Below the pieces are notes generated by a model. It was not told the DNA's origin. It was given only the letters and a program-made list of their open reading frames with translations, and ran no database searches. From contig SDNX01000005.1 of the NCBI GenBank assembly GCA_004524545.1, forward strand, positions 1 to 54,115: DNA of 54,115 nucleotides. The letters are read 5' to 3'. This document shows, piece after piece, positions 6,283 through 43,653 of the stretch. A program made the translations under genes and the position numbers. This DNA comes from Promethearchaeota archaeon (GTDB lineage Archaea; Asgardarchaeota; Lokiarchaeia; Sigyniarchaeales; Promethearchaeaceae). Positions within the stretch are counted from its first letter, which is position 1. The number at the start of each line of letters is the position of its first letter.

Positions 6283-7071
6283 GTGGGAGTACTCAAAGAA
6301 CTCAAACTTAAGGATCTGGTTACACTTCTTGGAACTTCCTGTGGGATCATGTCGATTATTCTGACAATCGATGGGAGATATCTTTGGGCAGCGGCAGCAT
6401 TCATCTATTTTTCAATGGTCTTTGATTTGCTAGATGGTATAGTTGCAAAACGGATGAACCAAGCCAATGAGTTGGGTAAAATCCTAGATTCTATGAGCGA
6501 TTTGCTATGTTTCGGAATTGCTCCGGCGGTCTTGATGTACAGAGCATATACTGGGGGGGGTGCATTTCCTCCATTTGCATTGATGCTATTTTGTGCGATA
6601 TTCATTATTGGAGCTATTTTAAGATTAACATGGTTTAGTATCAGTGAGAATAAAGGATATGAGGGTGTGACAACACCAGTTACATCGTCTTTAATTCTTA
6701 CTTTATTTTTCATTGATACCTTTTATGGATATTTTCCAGATTCTGGATCTCTTTTGGGAGAGATTATGAAGTATATAATACCAATATGTATGTTAATTCT
6801 TCCATATCTAAATGTAAGTCGTTTTTTTGTGTATGGGGAGGGTGTACGTGCCAGAGAAAATAAGAGAATCACCTTTTTCTTGTTTTTAATTATGGGATTC
6901 GGCTTAATTTCGTCAATTCTCACATTTTTTAACCATGAAATTACTGGACTATACATATATGTTCTGTGTGTTTCAATTGCAGTAATGCTTTTCTTCTATC
7001 TTGGAATTGGTATATTAAACTACATTAAAAGAAAAAAAGAAATGACTAAAAGTAATTGCATAATTGATTAA
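6283..7071 (+). CDS. CDP-alcohol phosphatidyltransferase (archaetidylserine/phosphatidylserine synthase-like)
   Basis: DLLDGIVAKRMNQANELGKILDSMSD matches the CDP-OH-P signature; multiple TMs; GTG start. The stop codon lies in the TIR of repeat copy A. Confidence 0.8.
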   Translation: MGVLKELKLKDLVTLLGTSCGIMSIILTIDGRYLWAAAAFIYFSMVFDLLDGIVAKRMNQANELGKILDSMSDLLCFGIAPAVLMYRAYTGGGAFPPFALMLFCAIFIIGAILRLTWFSISENKGYEGVTTPVTSSLILTLFFIDTFYGYFPDSGSLLGEIMKYIIPICMLILPYLNVSRFFVYGEGVRARENKRITFFLFLIMGFGLISSILTFFNHEITGLYIYVLCVSIAVMLFFYLGIGILNYIKRKKEMTKSNCIID

Positions 7072-7298
7072 TCAATATGTATCTAAGCCCTTAAAGGCTG
7101 GATTGTCAATAACACCATGTATTTTTCACGTATTTCTACGACCAACGTCAATAACCGCATTTTTGGAAAAACTCATATAGACCATAGGGTTTAGGCACTC
7201 CTACGCTAAAAAGCACCTTTCTATCTCTTTCAGAAAGGCTTTTTAGCGTAGTGCTATGAGAAATAGGCTATTCCAAAGAGTAGGGTAGATCTTGATTA
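7069..7298 (+). mobile_element. MITE-like element copy A (230 bp)
   Basis: TAATCAATATGT...AGATCTTGATTA TIRs, internal hairpin CTACGCTAAAAAGCACCTTTCT/AGAAAGGCTTTTTAGCGTAG; homologous to copies B and C. Confidence 0.75.
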
Positions 7299-10256: not shown

Positions 10257-11000
10257 ATGGCATTACAATTTTTACAATTATTAGGCTTTATATTTGAAGG
10301 CATTGGGCTAATTTCTGGAATCATAATTGCCACAGTCGTATTGAAAAAAGATTCGAAATATGTCGGGAATCGATTAATGGCAGCTGCAATGATCCTTTTA
10401 GGTGTTTATATGGGTTCAATATTATCATACGATATTTTGTATCCGATATTTCCAACCCAAGATTGGATTGTTCAAGGATTGTATCGAATATGCGTAATTG
10501 CATTGTTCTTTGGTACAATGTTTCTATTCTTCACTATAAGGGTGATGTGTCTATCTAGCGCTTGGCTAACCAAGAGAAATACTATACCGTATGCAATAAT
10601 TATTTTAGTATATAGTATTACGATATGGTTCATAGATTTCCTAGAGATACTCCCTGGAGACCAAGTAAATACTCAGACAAAAATCATGATCCCGTTATAT
10701 ATATTAATCGCAGGAGTTGCTTATTTTATTATATTCTCGATGATAGGGCTGTACAGATTTGGGATAAGGAAATCAGAAGGACTGAAGAGAATGAAAATGG
10801 TCATATTCTTCTCTGGATTGGCTGTTTCAATGCTTGCTATTGTAATTAATGTATTAAGTAATATTTTGGCAGACCCATTAGGAGTTTTGGATGTTTTATT
10901 CTTCGGAACTCTCGCAATTGCGATGGTCGTCATGACTTTCGGATTTGTAGGAAGACAAGCTGATCCTCAAAAGGAGATGCAGATTGATATGCACGATTGA
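10257..11000 (+). CDS. Multi-TM membrane protein, unknown (about 7 TM)
   Basis: Hydrophobic periodicity; no recognised family. Confidence 0.55.
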   Translation: MALQFLQLLGFIFEGIGLISGIIIATVVLKKDSKYVGNRLMAAAMILLGVYMGSILSYDILYPIFPTQDWIVQGLYRICVIALFFGTMFLFFTIRVMCLSSAWLTKRNTIPYAIIILVYSITIWFIDFLEILPGDQVNTQTKIMIPLYILIAGVAYFIIFSMIGLYRFGIRKSEGLKRMKMVIFFSGLAVSMLAIVINVLSNILADPLGVLDVLFFGTLAIAMVVMTFGFVGRQADPQKEMQIDMHD

Positions 11001-11025: not shown

Positions 11026-11265
11026 TAATCAAGATCTACCCTACTCTTTGGAATATCCTATTTCTCATAGCACTACGCTAAAAAGCCTTTCTGAGTGGGA
11101 TAGAAAGGTGCTTTTTATCGTAGGAGCACCTAATACCCATGGTAACCTAAAAGGTCGGTTGATTTTACGTTGGATGTTGTCGTTGACGTTCGATGTAAAA
11201 ATACGTTAAAAACAAGTGGTTTACGTTACCAACGGAGCCTTAAGAACTCAGAAAGATGTTGATTA
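11026..11265 (-). mobile_element. MITE-like element copy B (240 bp), inverted relative to A
   Basis: TAATCAAGATCTACCCTACTCTTTGGAATAT...AGATGTTGATTA; reverse complement is near-identical to copy A at one end and to copy C at the other. Confidence 0.75.
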
Positions 11266-11281
11266 ATTAAAACCAATTTGA

Positions 11282-12049
11282 TCACAGATTATCTAACGAA
11301 AAGTCAATATCATCACGTTTTTTTATGTATTCTGCAGGATTTCCAAAGTAAATGGAATCAGATTCCAATATTTGAAAAGGTAGAGTAAAAGATCCTGCTC
11401 CAATAATTGTTCCAGTTTTCACATGAGTCCCTGGAAGCAATGTAGATTTTGCTCCAATTATTGCATTTTCATCGATATATATCGTTTTAATAATGAGTTT
11501 ATCTTCTTCCAGCAAACACGATAAAATTGCGCTGCTATGCCCAATTATCACATTTTTTTCGATGTCTACGAACTCAGGGGTGATCCATACATCCCAATTG
11601 ATACCATACTTGCCAATTTTCACTCCAAAAGCCAAATAATATAACTGTCTACGAAACCATGGGAATGGGGTAGATGAAATCACATAGGATGGAAATAATC
11701 GCGCATAATTTCGCAAGTAATAGTATTTGAAATCTCGATTGGTTAATCTTCTGGGAAATATTCCCTCGCGTGGGGCATGAAATAATTTTAAAAGAAATAG
11801 ATGAATTTTCATTATTCCCACAGCGGATAGGACAAGAATATAATACATTACAAGAAGATCTAAAGGAATGAGTAATATTGATACCACCAAAGGCATTCTT
11901 AGCCATAACCAACCGAATCCAAGTTCTAAAAATACTGAGGGGATCAGAGAAATCCAGATATGAAGAAGGTAAAAGATGAAGTATCTCTTCCGTAGTGTTT
12001 CATGGATGTACATCGGATGCGACATTTTAAGGGAGGTTGGAGATGACAT
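11282..12049 (-). CDS. Membrane-anchored left-handed beta-helix (hexapeptide) acyltransferase-like protein
   Basis: Hexapeptide repeats (VDIEKNVIIGHSS, IYIDENAIIGAKSTLLPGTHVKTGTIIGAGS) and terminal FGNPAEYIKKR. Confidence 0.7.
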   Translation of the reverse strand: MSSPTSLKMSHPMYIHETLRKRYFIFYLLHIWISLIPSVFLELGFGWLWLRMPLVVSILLIPLDLLVMYYILVLSAVGIMKIHLFLLKLFHAPREGIFPRRLTNRDFKYYYLRNYARLFPSYVISSTPFPWFRRQLYYLAFGVKIGKYGINWDVWITPEFVDIEKNVIIGHSSAILSCLLEEDKLIIKTIYIDENAIIGAKSTLLPGTHVKTGTIIGAGSFTLPFQILESDSIYFGNPAEYIKKRDDIDFSLDNL

Positions 12050-23225: not shown

Positions 23226-23564
23226 ATGTCAAATTTTAGTATATTATTGAGTACGACAGATGAAATACCCGGATTTCGTATTACGGAATATAAAGGCTTA
23301 GTTTTTGGAATTACAGTGCGTTCCCGAGGAATGGGTGGGGACTGCGCTGCAGGATGTCAATCTTGTGCAGGAGGAGAGGTGTCTGCGTACACAAGTGTTG
23401 TTTTAGATTCACGAAATGAAGCCTTGAACCGTATGGTGGCTGATGCACAGACTCGTGGTGCTAATGCAATTGTTGGAATTAGGATTGATAATGATCAACT
23501 AGGTCAGGGAGCAAACACGGGCGTAGTTGCAATGGGAACGGCAGTTGTTGTCACAAACATGTGA
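23226..23564 (+). CDS. YbjQ/UPF0145 family protein, copy 1
   Basis: TTDEIPGFRITEYKGLVFGITVRSRG...NEALNRMVADAQTRGANAIVGIRID. Confidence 0.85.
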   Translation: MSNFSILLSTTDEIPGFRITEYKGLVFGITVRSRGMGGDCAAGCQSCAGGEVSAYTSVVLDSRNEALNRMVADAQTRGANAIVGIRIDNDQLGQGANTGVVAMGTAVVVTNM

Positions 23565-23581: not shown

Positions 23582-23950
23582 CTGGCGCAACAAAATATAA
23601 TCCTCGCAACAACAAAAAAAATCCCTGGATATAAAATTATAGAATACCGGGGATTGGTGATGGGAGTAACGGTTAGGTCCCGTGGATATTTTGGTGCTTG
23701 GTGCGCATCGTTTCAAACATGTGCAGGCGGCGAGATTTCACAATATACTGCTCAACTTCTCGAAACTCGAAATGAAGCGTTGAACCGTATGGTGGCTGAT
23801 GCATATGCACGTGGTGCCAACGCAATCATCGGTATAAAATTCGATAATGATGAGTTGGGTTCGAAAAAAGCTTCCAGTAATTCAAATATGACGATCGCGA
23901 ATAATGCGACCATTGCTGTTGGTACCGCTGTAATCGTTCAAAAGCTATAA
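23582..23950 (+). CDS. YbjQ/UPF0145 family protein, copy 2 (probable CTG start)
   Basis: LAQQNIILATTKKIPGYKIIEYRGLVMGVTVRSRG aligns residue for residue with copy 1 from position 1; GGAGGAG just upstream. Confidence 0.75.
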   Translation: MAQQNIILATTKKIPGYKIIEYRGLVMGVTVRSRGYFGAWCASFQTCAGGEISQYTAQLLETRNEALNRMVADAYARGANAIIGIKFDNDELGSKKASSNSNMTIANNATIAVGTAVIVQKL

Positions 23951-37982: not shown

Positions 37983-38229
37983 GTTCAAGAACACGGGGTA
38001 GGAATCTTCCAGTTGGACTACGTTCCCGTACTTCTTACTTACCTATTCTACATCTGTTCGGGGTATTTAAACAAATCATCATGTGTTACTAATCGTGCTA
38101 CGTATCCATCGTGATATTGGATCGTGATTTATCGTAAAATTTTCGATTTTACACGTTTGATACCGTTTCACGATGGGTTTAAATTGAAGGAATGGTTTGT
38201 ATGATCCATTCAACAGAATAAGTGTTGAC
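37983..38229 (+). repeat. Structured repeat family R2, copy 1
   Basis: About 240 bp homologous to 42558..42893 in the same orientation, with nested inverted repeats. Confidence 0.7.
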
Positions 38230-42145: not shown

Positions 42146-42427
42146 ATGGCACAGAAAAATTGGTTATATCCTCCCGAGGGATTGGGAGTAGATGAGACTT
42201 TTGCATTAATGGAGAAATCCGCCCGAATGGTAATAAATAAGGATAAGGAATATCCAACCCAAAAATTCAGAGGCTTTGGTTCAATAGGAAAAGCAGTCTA
42301 TTTTAATAGGATTTTTCCATTCAGATTTGCTAGATTGTTTAAAGCGAGAAAAGGGCAGATTTTAGGAGGAGCAGTCAGCCGAGTAGGTATACTGTTGATT
42401 AGTCAACATCTATTCCGTGATATCTAA
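42146..42427 (+). CDS. Small hypothetical protein (93 aa), possibly a fragment
   Basis: ORF only. Confidence 0.35.
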   Translation: MAQKNWLYPPEGLGVDETFALMEKSARMVINKDKEYPTQKFRGFGSIGKAVYFNRIFPFRFARLFKARKGQILGGAVSRVGILLISQHLFRDI

Positions 42428-42438
42428 ATTTTCCCTTT

Positions 42439-42532
42439 CTATCCTAACGGAGGTATATAGTACGAAGTGCCATCCATTTGGTGTACCATTCTATCCTAAC
42501 GGATAGGTTACGCATCTATCCTATCGGATAGA
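42439..42532. repeat. Three copies of CTATCCTAACGG-type short repeats, two of them palindromic
   Basis: CTATCCTAACGGAGG (42439), CTATCCTAACGGATAG (42491-42506), CTATCCTATCGGATAG (42517-42532). Confidence 0.65.
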
Positions 42533-42557
42533 ATGCCTCATGCTACGCATTCGGCGT

Positions 42558-42893
42558 GTTCAAGAACACCGATAGGGATCTTTCAATTGGACGACGTTCC
42601 CGCACTTCTTACTTACCTATTCTACATCTGTTCGGGTCATGATGTGTTACCCCTCCACTTTCATCCAAGAACCCCCTATCCTACCATCCGAACTACCAAA
42701 CCCGAACTACGAACTTAACCTTATACAATCTGTTCGGCGTATTTAAACAAATCACGATGTGTTACCTATCCATCGGGATATTGGATCGTAATTTATCGTA
42801 AAATTTTCGATTTTACACGTTTGACCCTGTTTCACGATGGTTTTAAATTGAAGGAATGGTATGGATGATCAATTCAGCAGAATAGATGTTGAC
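42558..42893 (+). repeat. Structured repeat family R2, copy 2 with internal partial duplication
   Basis: Homologous to 37983..38229; an extra segment of roughly 90-100 bp lies between two ATCTGTTCGG...GATGTGTTAC copies. Confidence 0.7.
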
Positions 42894-42895
42894 TA

Positions 42896-43036
42896 ATGAA
42901 AAATTTGAGAGAGTGGTATGAATCAAGCACCTTTGAATTAATGACAGATGAAGAAGCAAAAGAAATGAATAAAGCAGTGAGTGAATTTCGAGCGAATTTT
43001 CGTCCTAATGAGGTAAATTTAGATGATTCTAGTTGA
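42896..43036 (+). CDS. Small VapB-like antitoxin (46 aa)
   Basis: MKNLREWYESSTFELMTDEEAKEMNKAVSEFRANFRPNEVNLDDSS*; immediately upstream of and overlapping a PIN-type start MILVD. Confidence 0.55.
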   Translation: MKNLREWYESSTFELMTDEEAKEMNKAVSEFRANFRPNEVNLDDSS

Positions 43037-43653
43037 TAACCAGTTACATCGTTGATTTGATTAATCAATATCTATCTGAGTTCTTAAGGCTCCGTTACCC
43101 AAATTATCCATGTAATTTTAACGTATTTTAGCATATAACGTCAATAACGCTATTTTTCCAAAATTCTACCCAACTTATAGGGTTTAGGTGCACCTACGCT
43201 AAAAAAACCTTTTAACGCACTTATGAAAGGCTTTTTAGCGTATTTTTACCTTAGAAAGGAGTAGGATGGTTTTTGATTAGGAAAAAAGTCAAAATCGACT
43301 CAGAATTGGATGAGGAGATCCTTTTTATAACTGAAATTACTGTATATGAACTATATTTTGGATTATTTAGCAACAATATACTCAATAAAGATCCAGAAAA
43401 GTTGCAAAAAAGAATAGATACTCTCTCAAAAATATTAAGCAAATTCCAAATTTTACCATTTAGTAGAGATGAGTCAATCCAATCTGCTAAAATATTAGGA
43501 CAGCTAAAATTAGACAGAAAAACAATTGAATTTCGTGATGGGATGATAGCTGGTAGTAGATTTGCAAATGGAATTACTAAAATCCTGACTCGAAATGCAG
43601 ACCATTTCGATCGAATCCCAGGAATTCAAACAATTACATATGAGCTTCATTAG
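43023..43653 (+). pseudogene. VapC-like PIN-domain toxin interrupted by MITE-like element C
   Basis: MILVDNQLHR at 43023 (overlapping antitoxin stop), element at 43062-43279, then ...DEEILFITEITVYELYFGLF...RDGMIAGSRFANGITKILTRNADHFDRIPGI. Confidence 0.65.
43062..43279 (+). mobile_element. MITE-like element copy C (218 bp)
   Basis: TAATCAATATCTATCTGAGTTCTTAAGGCTCCGTTA...TACGCTAAAAA...CTTTTTAGCGTA...TTGATTA. Confidence 0.75.

What the first reader, a model, noticed from the sequence alone, without database searches (positions are those of the whole stretch)
7069..7298. New MITE-like family: three 218-240 bp non-coding elements with shared TIRs
Copies at 7069-7298 (+), 11026-11265 (-) and 43062-43279 (+) share a start TAATCAA[T/C]ATCT.TCTGAGTTCTTAAGGCTCCGTT (degraded in A). 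They also share a central CTACGCTAAAAAGCACCTTTCT...AGAAAGGCTTTTTAGCGTAG. Copies A and B share an almost identical end, TGCTATGAGAAATAGGNTATTCCAAAGAGTAGGGTAGATCTTGATTA. The ends are imperfect inverted repeats: TAATCAAyATCT against the complement of AGATCTTGATTA. They can be read as TA|ATCAA...TTGAT|TA, as expected for IS630/Tc1-mariner-type TA target duplication. No copy encodes a protein. A non-autonomous transposable element of this structure is the simplest explanation. Assignment to a transposase superfamily is inference.
Basis: partly seen in the sequence, partly recalled or inferred. Interest (0 to 1): 0.85.

Follow-up and report, generated by a model that had tools for sequence, protein, structure and literature searches.

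The report
Lokiarchaeal MITE family with covarying hairpin
Three short non-coding repeats in this Lokiarchaeota genome are copies of a small mobile DNA element that inserts into TA-centred sites and carries a conserved hairpin; its close relatives are scattered through this genus only, and the enzyme that moves them was not found.

Summary
Copies A, B and C are 72-77% identical over 186-243 bp (83-174 bits; best hit in 40 shuffled windows 32 bits). Homology stops at the proposed ends, and no copy has a protein-coding gene. The genome has 8 copies; a sister species of the same genus (Candidatus Lokiarchaeota archaeon Zod_Metabat.1044) has 2 full-length ones. The family belongs to a larger set of non-coding elements (about 120-735 bp) sharing the terminal repeat TARTCAAYATCTATYC; 79 other genomes of the order show no enrichment. 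One further element (42400-42895) lies in the window. The MITE reading is well supported: terminal inverted repeats, a palindromic target around TA, neighbours sharing one TA, and positions occupied in one species and empty in the other. Assignment to IS630/Tc1-mariner is not supported: no IS630-type (DDE_3) transposase, no rve transposase, and no DDE_Tnp_1 gene with these ends was found in either genome. The central hairpin occurs in otherwise different subfamilies and its base pairs covary, so the fold, not only the sequence, is kept. RNA versus single-stranded DNA is undecided. New member of a known kind.

The parts
7069..7298 (+). Copy A, full element, TA to TA (230 bp)
   Evidence: BLASTN to own-genome and sister-genome copies stops at these ends
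7201..7251 (+). Copy A central hairpin CTACGCTAAAAAG...CTTTTTAGCGTAG
   Evidence: fold z = -7.7; covariance model 90.7 bits for 7187-7251
11026..11265 (-). Copy B, full element (240 bp), between two convergent genes
   Evidence: flanking ORFs 10257-11000 (+) and 11282-12049 (-)
11073..11123 (-). Copy B central hairpin
   Evidence: fold z = -5.0; covariance model 87.3 bits for 11073-11137
43062..43279 (+). Copy C, element with shortened right part (218 bp); appears to lie in the 5' part of a PIN-domain reading frame
43194..43243 (+). Copy C central hairpin
   Evidence: fold z = -5.1; covariance model 78.2 bits for 43180-43243
42400..42895 (.). Second, longer element (496 bp) of the same superfamily, perfect 16-bp TIRs, other internal sequence
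   Evidence: TIR pattern exact at both ends; similar stretches in many G001 places
37999..38229 (+). Truncated relative of the 42400-42895 element
   Evidence: direct repeats 63-92% identical to 42573-42893, many partial matches in G001
43273..43653 (+). Remainder of a PIN-domain (VapC-like) gene, apparently interrupted near its 5' end by copy C
   Evidence: Pfam PIN positions 25-118 of 120 only, E 2.4e-9

Best explanation
A, B and C are old copies of a non-autonomous DNA transposable element (MITE). An enzyme encoded elsewhere, not found in either genome, recognises the terminal repeats TARTCAAYATCTATYC with asymmetric subterminal sequences, excises or copies the element, and joins it into a TA at the centre of a palindromic, T-rich target (about TTTRAYTARTYAAA). 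TA ends up on both sides (inferred 2-bp target duplication). Because that target resembles the element's own tips, elements often insert directly next to each other and share one TA. A hairpin in the middle has been kept by compensatory changes across otherwise different subfamilies, so it probably serves the element's mobility or its transcript. Shown: multiple copies, exact ends, target preference, shared TA, presence/absence between species, hairpin covariation. Inferred: the transposition chemistry, TA duplication at each site, the role of the hairpin. The enzyme is unidentified.
For: Eight copies in the own genome, two full-length in the sister genome, none in 59 other relatives. TIR pattern: 28 exact hits in G001 and 5 in G000 against 0 and 1 for the reversed control; no enrichment in 79 other genomes of the order. 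Homology ends at the TIRs. Outward flanks of 53 exact TIR ends: T at -5 in 91%, at -4 in 89%, pyrimidine at -1 in 85%; TT at -5/-4 in 40 of 51 against 12% background. Neighbouring elements share one TA: G001 C27:107597-107598, C35:16186-16187, C30:1192-1193, C6:401115-401116. Copy F (L007) is absent at the orthologous convergent gene pair in G001; A, B and C have no counterpart at their G001 positions either. Hairpin stem: 93% of cells paired, 12 double-change cells against 2.7 expected, 0 of 1000 shuffles (similar).
Against: No coding element with these TIRs was found. Transposase domains DDE_3 and rve are absent; DDE_Tnp_1 is present once per genome but without the TIRs. Both genomes are fragmented MAGs, so the autonomous copy may be missing from the assemblies. 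The one orthologous empty site does not preserve the TA in G001, so the duplication is not proven at a single site. Copies are about 68-84% identical, so recent movement is not shown.
Confidence: 0.85

Rival explanations
1. The elements are dispersed genes for a structured non-coding RNA (or a ssDNA hairpin) with a cellular function; the TIRs are only the closing stem of the RNA, and spread is incidental.
For: Terminal, central and small subterminal stems fold together; central stem covaries; G-U exceeds A-C in the stem, 14 to 5.
Against: No strand preference in folding energy (24 hairpins, p = 0.82; whole elements p = 0.48 and 0.63). No Rfam match. Positions differ between sister species, and TIR tips match target flanks, which a resident RNA gene does not explain.
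Confidence: 0.08
2. MITEs of an IS630/Tc1-mariner element, as the first reader proposed (a more specific form of the best explanation).
For: TA-centred palindromic target and TIRs; RUP is a known precedent of a MITE attributed to IS630-Spn1 with TA targets (PMC2229807).
Against: No DDE_3 (IS630) domain in G000 or G001 although the search recovers it in control genomes. Some other TIR elements also give 2-bp duplications (general knowledge).
Confidence: 0.2
3. Moved by a conservative recombinase with a 2-bp TA core (serine recombinase, IS607-like, or IS110-like guided by a structured RNA encoded in the element).
For: Element tips and target flanks form one palindrome TTGAYTARTCAA around TA; insertion at own ends sharing one TA; conserved structured interior.
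Confidence: 0.1
4. Copies arose by segmental duplication of larger regions.
For: Three copies lie in one 54-kb window.
Against: Flanks are unrelated; alignments end at the TIR ends; other copies are on five other contigs.
Confidence: 0.01

Closest known systems
ERIC / RUP / Correia (NEMIS) MITEs of bacteria (PMC2229807, PMC10969869)
   Same: 100-250 bp class, intergenic, TA at both ends, TIRs that can close a long stem-loop, dispersed copies, often near gene ends
   Different: No sequence relation found; here the TIR is shared by several subfamilies of 120-735 bp with different interiors, and a separate central hairpin module covaries; host is a Lokiarchaeota genus
SM1-SM4 MITEs of Sulfolobus solfataricus (cited in PMC10969869)
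   Same: Archaeal, non-autonomous, several families in one genome
   Different: Those are linked to resident IS elements (own knowledge); here no partner IS was found
IS630/Tc1-mariner-derived MITEs
   Same: TIRs and TA-centred palindromic target
   Different: No IS630 transposase domain in either genome; strong preference for a target like the element's own tips
IS30 family
   Same: From general knowledge: 2-bp target duplications, palindromic targets, insertion next to own ends
   Different: No rve-domain transposase in either genome; elements here are non-coding
CIR repeats of Caulobacter/Brucella (PMC2229807)
   Same: Conserved RNA secondary structure with arms among copies
   Different: CIRs lack TIRs; these have 16-bp TIRs and a TA-centred target

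Membership tests
Prokaryotic MITE | short, non-coding, multi-copy, mainly intergenic | tested here: met
   218-241 bp, 8 copies in G000; C appears to be inside a PIN gene
Prokaryotic MITE | terminal inverted repeats | tested here: met
   TAATCAA...TTGATTA; superfamily TIR TARTCAAYATCTATYC
Prokaryotic MITE | short target duplication | tested here: inconclusive
   TA on both sides and shared TA between neighbours; single-TA empty site not preserved in the one ortholog
Prokaryotic MITE | insertion polymorphism between related genomes | tested here: met
   copy F empty in G001; A, B, C without counterpart
Prokaryotic MITE | autonomous partner with the same ends (mobilisation in trans) | tested here: inconclusive
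   none found, but both genomes are incomplete and fragmented
IS630/Tc1-mariner MITE | TA target | tested here: met
IS630/Tc1-mariner MITE | IS630-type transposase with matching TIRs | tested here: not met
   no DDE_3 in G000 or G001
IS30-derived | rve-domain transposase with matching TIRs | tested here: not met
   no rve match
IS5/IS427-derived | DDE_Tnp_1 transposase with matching TIRs | tested here: not met
   one gene each, no such TIRs around
IS200/IS605-derived | no TIRs, no target duplication, one-sided target | tested here: not met
   TIRs and the same flank preference at both ends
IS110/IS607-like | corresponding recombinase gene | not tested
Described structured RNA (Rfam) | match to a covariance model | tested here: not met
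   nothing at gathering level in the window; weak matches elsewhere are below thresholds
Structured RNA in general | covarying base pairs | tested here: met
   central stem; cannot tell RNA from ssDNA
Structured RNA in general | transcription | not testable with these tools
   no RNA-seq available

The most novel reading that the evidence does not exclude
The covarying hairpin and structured interior are a working part of the mobility system: an RNA or single-stranded DNA fold that a recombinase, so far undescribed in Asgard archaea, needs to choose the TTGAYTARTCAA target around a 2-bp TA core. Many non-coding subfamilies with different interiors would use this one machinery.
Probability: 0.12. 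Interest if true: 0.8.

Novelty: new member of a known kind. Interest (0 to 1): 0.48.

Why it matters
MITEs of Asgard archaea were not found described in the searched library. This genus carries several dozen elements with one terminal repeat, a strong palindromic target preference and a shared covarying hairpin, but no detectable transposase. It offers a defined end sequence with which to hunt for the enzyme, marks where assemblies of these genomes break, and shows such elements flanking or interrupting genes in a lineage close to the origin of eukaryotes.

Tried and rejected
Autonomous partner: TIRs with an ORF nearby were checked. The ORFs after L053:10167 and L065:6243 look like ordinary genes (the first a cobalamin adenosyltransferase); the 1968-bp span L075:724-2691 reads as two elements around ordinary ORFs. 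Two DDE_Tnp_1 loci lack the TIRs. The reverse transcriptase at L017:7673-9304 lies 5 kb away from the elements, with no sign of a link. RNA strand test by folding energy: no preference overall; a subgroup of two-loop hairpins favours the forward strand, but that is post hoc. Subterminal hairpin after the TIR: suggestive in the A/B/C family (GAGTT/GGCTC, AGCC/GGCT, AGGTT/AGCCT) but weak over all left ends (mean helix 5.45 against 4.91 shuffled). Rfam: nothing. Phage and plasmid collections: no match. The viral contig scan failed five times for technical reasons, so viral carriers are untested. Segmental duplication rejected. IS605-type one-sided target considered because several left flanks read TTGAT; rejected because both ends show the same preference.

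Full report
Observation. The three copies are real and correctly placed. They are 72-77% identical to each other, with 83-174 bits against at most 32 bits in 40 dinucleotide-shuffled windows. Each is bounded by TAATCAA...TTGATTA, contains no protein-coding gene of note, and carries a central hairpin folding 5.0-7.7 standard deviations better than shuffled sequence.

Copies elsewhere. The own genome (154 contigs, 76% complete) holds eight copies: A, B, C, and those on contigs C44, C144, C40 (cut by the contig end), C89 and C82. In 60 relatives only G001, of the same genus, has matches; two are full-length (C2:282698-282926 and C16:280372-280611). G001's contig lengths identify it as Candidatus Lokiarchaeota archaeon Zod_Metabat.1044. 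Alignments between copies end at the TIR ends, so flanks are unrelated.

A larger group. In G001, left halves of the family are joined to other interiors. The end sequence TARTCAANATCTATYY has 28 exact hits in G001 and 5 in G000, against 0 and 1 for the reversed control; with a slightly looser pattern and one mismatch, 101 and 20 against 20 and 6. The pattern TARTCAAYATCTATYC has 24 exact hits in G001, 2 in G000 and only three scattered single hits in the other 79 genomes of the order. Paired ends define elements of about 120-735 bp. Subfamilies share end stretches of 70-90 bp and internal blocks in different combinations, so the group is mosaic. One such element lies in the window at 42400-42895, just left of copy C.

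Target and junctions. The sequence outside 53 exact ends, chosen by the inside sequence only, is strongly non-random: T at -5 (91%), T at -4 (89%), pyrimidine at -1 (85%), A at -2 (58%), G at -3 (42%). TT at -5/-4 occurs in 40 of 51 ends against 12% background. Flank and tip together form the palindrome TTGAYTARTCAA around TA. Neighbouring elements repeatedly share a single TA (G001 C27:107597-107598; C35:16186-16187; C30:1192-1193 with a weaker second end; C6:401115-401116, where the second element is confirmed by its own hairpin). This fits insertion into a TA with TA left on both sides; it does not fit elements that own both TAs.

Presence and absence. Copy F (L007:1501-1728) sits between two convergent genes; its joined flanks align in one piece with G001:C5:77988-78839, which has no element there. 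A few bases at the junction differ (TTAG-TAATAAAAAA against TTAG-AAAAAA), so the TA itself is not visible in G001. At the G001 positions matching A, B and C there is no element either, although other indels have occurred there. For copy G the G001 site holds a different sequence.

Structure. A covariance model of the central hairpin from eight copies finds 46 matches in 51 loci, including mirror reads of the palindrome. It has 13 matches in G000, 29 in G001 and none in 59 other relatives. On 32 forward reads, 93% of basal-stem cells are paired; 12 cells carry changes on both sides against 2.7 in shuffles (0 of 1000 shuffles reach it). The separate counting tool, which includes mirror reads, agrees: 15 against 3.9, 0 of 500. 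One pair shows A-U, U-A, C-G and U-G. The alignment was fitted to the structure and the rows are related, so the exact numbers lean towards the structure; slid controls stay below 50% paired. Folding energies of the two strands do not differ (p = 0.82), and G-U against A-C (14 to 5) is only suggestive, so RNA and ssDNA remain open.

Enzyme. Searches of both genomes gave no DDE_3 (IS630) and no rve (IS30, IS3 and others). One DDE_Tnp_1 gene in each genome is not flanked by these ends. All three profile searches recovered their family in control genomes. No coding element with the TIRs was found. The assemblies are incomplete and break at these repeats (G000 C40; G001 C18, C35), so a missing autonomous copy cannot be excluded.

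Context. Copy A starts at the stop codon of a CDP-alcohol phosphatidyltransferase gene. B, F and G lie between convergent genes. C appears to lie in the 5' part of a PIN-domain gene: the ORF to its right matches Pfam PIN only from position 25.

Literature. Bacterial MITEs such as ERIC, RUP and Correia elements are small, have TIRs, TA at the ends, target duplications and stable stem-loops, and RUP has been attributed to IS630-Spn1 (PMC2229807). Archaeal MITEs are known from Sulfolobus, Halobacterium, Haloquadratum and others (PMC10969869). No paper in the searched library joins Asgard with miniature inverted-repeat elements.

Verdict. A real, previously undescribed (as far as searched) MITE family, part of a genus-restricted superfamily with a strong palindromic TA target and a covarying hairpin module. 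Mobilisation in trans by a recombinase acting at TA is likely; the enzyme family is open.

Noticed in passing
42897-43653: Copy C appears to lie inside a PIN-domain (VapC-like) toxin-antitoxin-type gene; the 42400-42895 element ends directly before the start codon of the small ORF upstream (42897-43036).
   Followed up: partly
G000 C40 (L005), G001 C18 (L064) and C35 end (L068): Assembly contigs begin or end inside these elements, so the repeats break the assemblies.
   Followed up: partly
L073:1-70 and L074:12607-12676: G001 contigs C9 and C24 overlap at their ends and together are syntenic with the left part of the window.
   Followed up: no
L097:1734-2999 (-), G000 C33: Open 422-codon frame with a DDE_Tnp_1 domain, the only such match found in the genome; no TIRs of this group around it.
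   Followed up: partly
L017:7673-9304, G001 C6: Reverse transcriptase gene (RVT_1) 5 kb from two abutting elements; kind not determined.
   Followed up: no
L065, L059, L052, L058 and window 42400-42895: The longer subfamily carries on one strand a conserved motif like AAAGCCGAATGCGTAGCATGAGGC with a GA/GA internal loop; in L017 its outer stem is changed to AGGC/GCCT.
   Followed up: partly
window 23401-23504 and 23757-23860: 104-bp direct repeat (76%), not compared with this finding.
   Followed up: no
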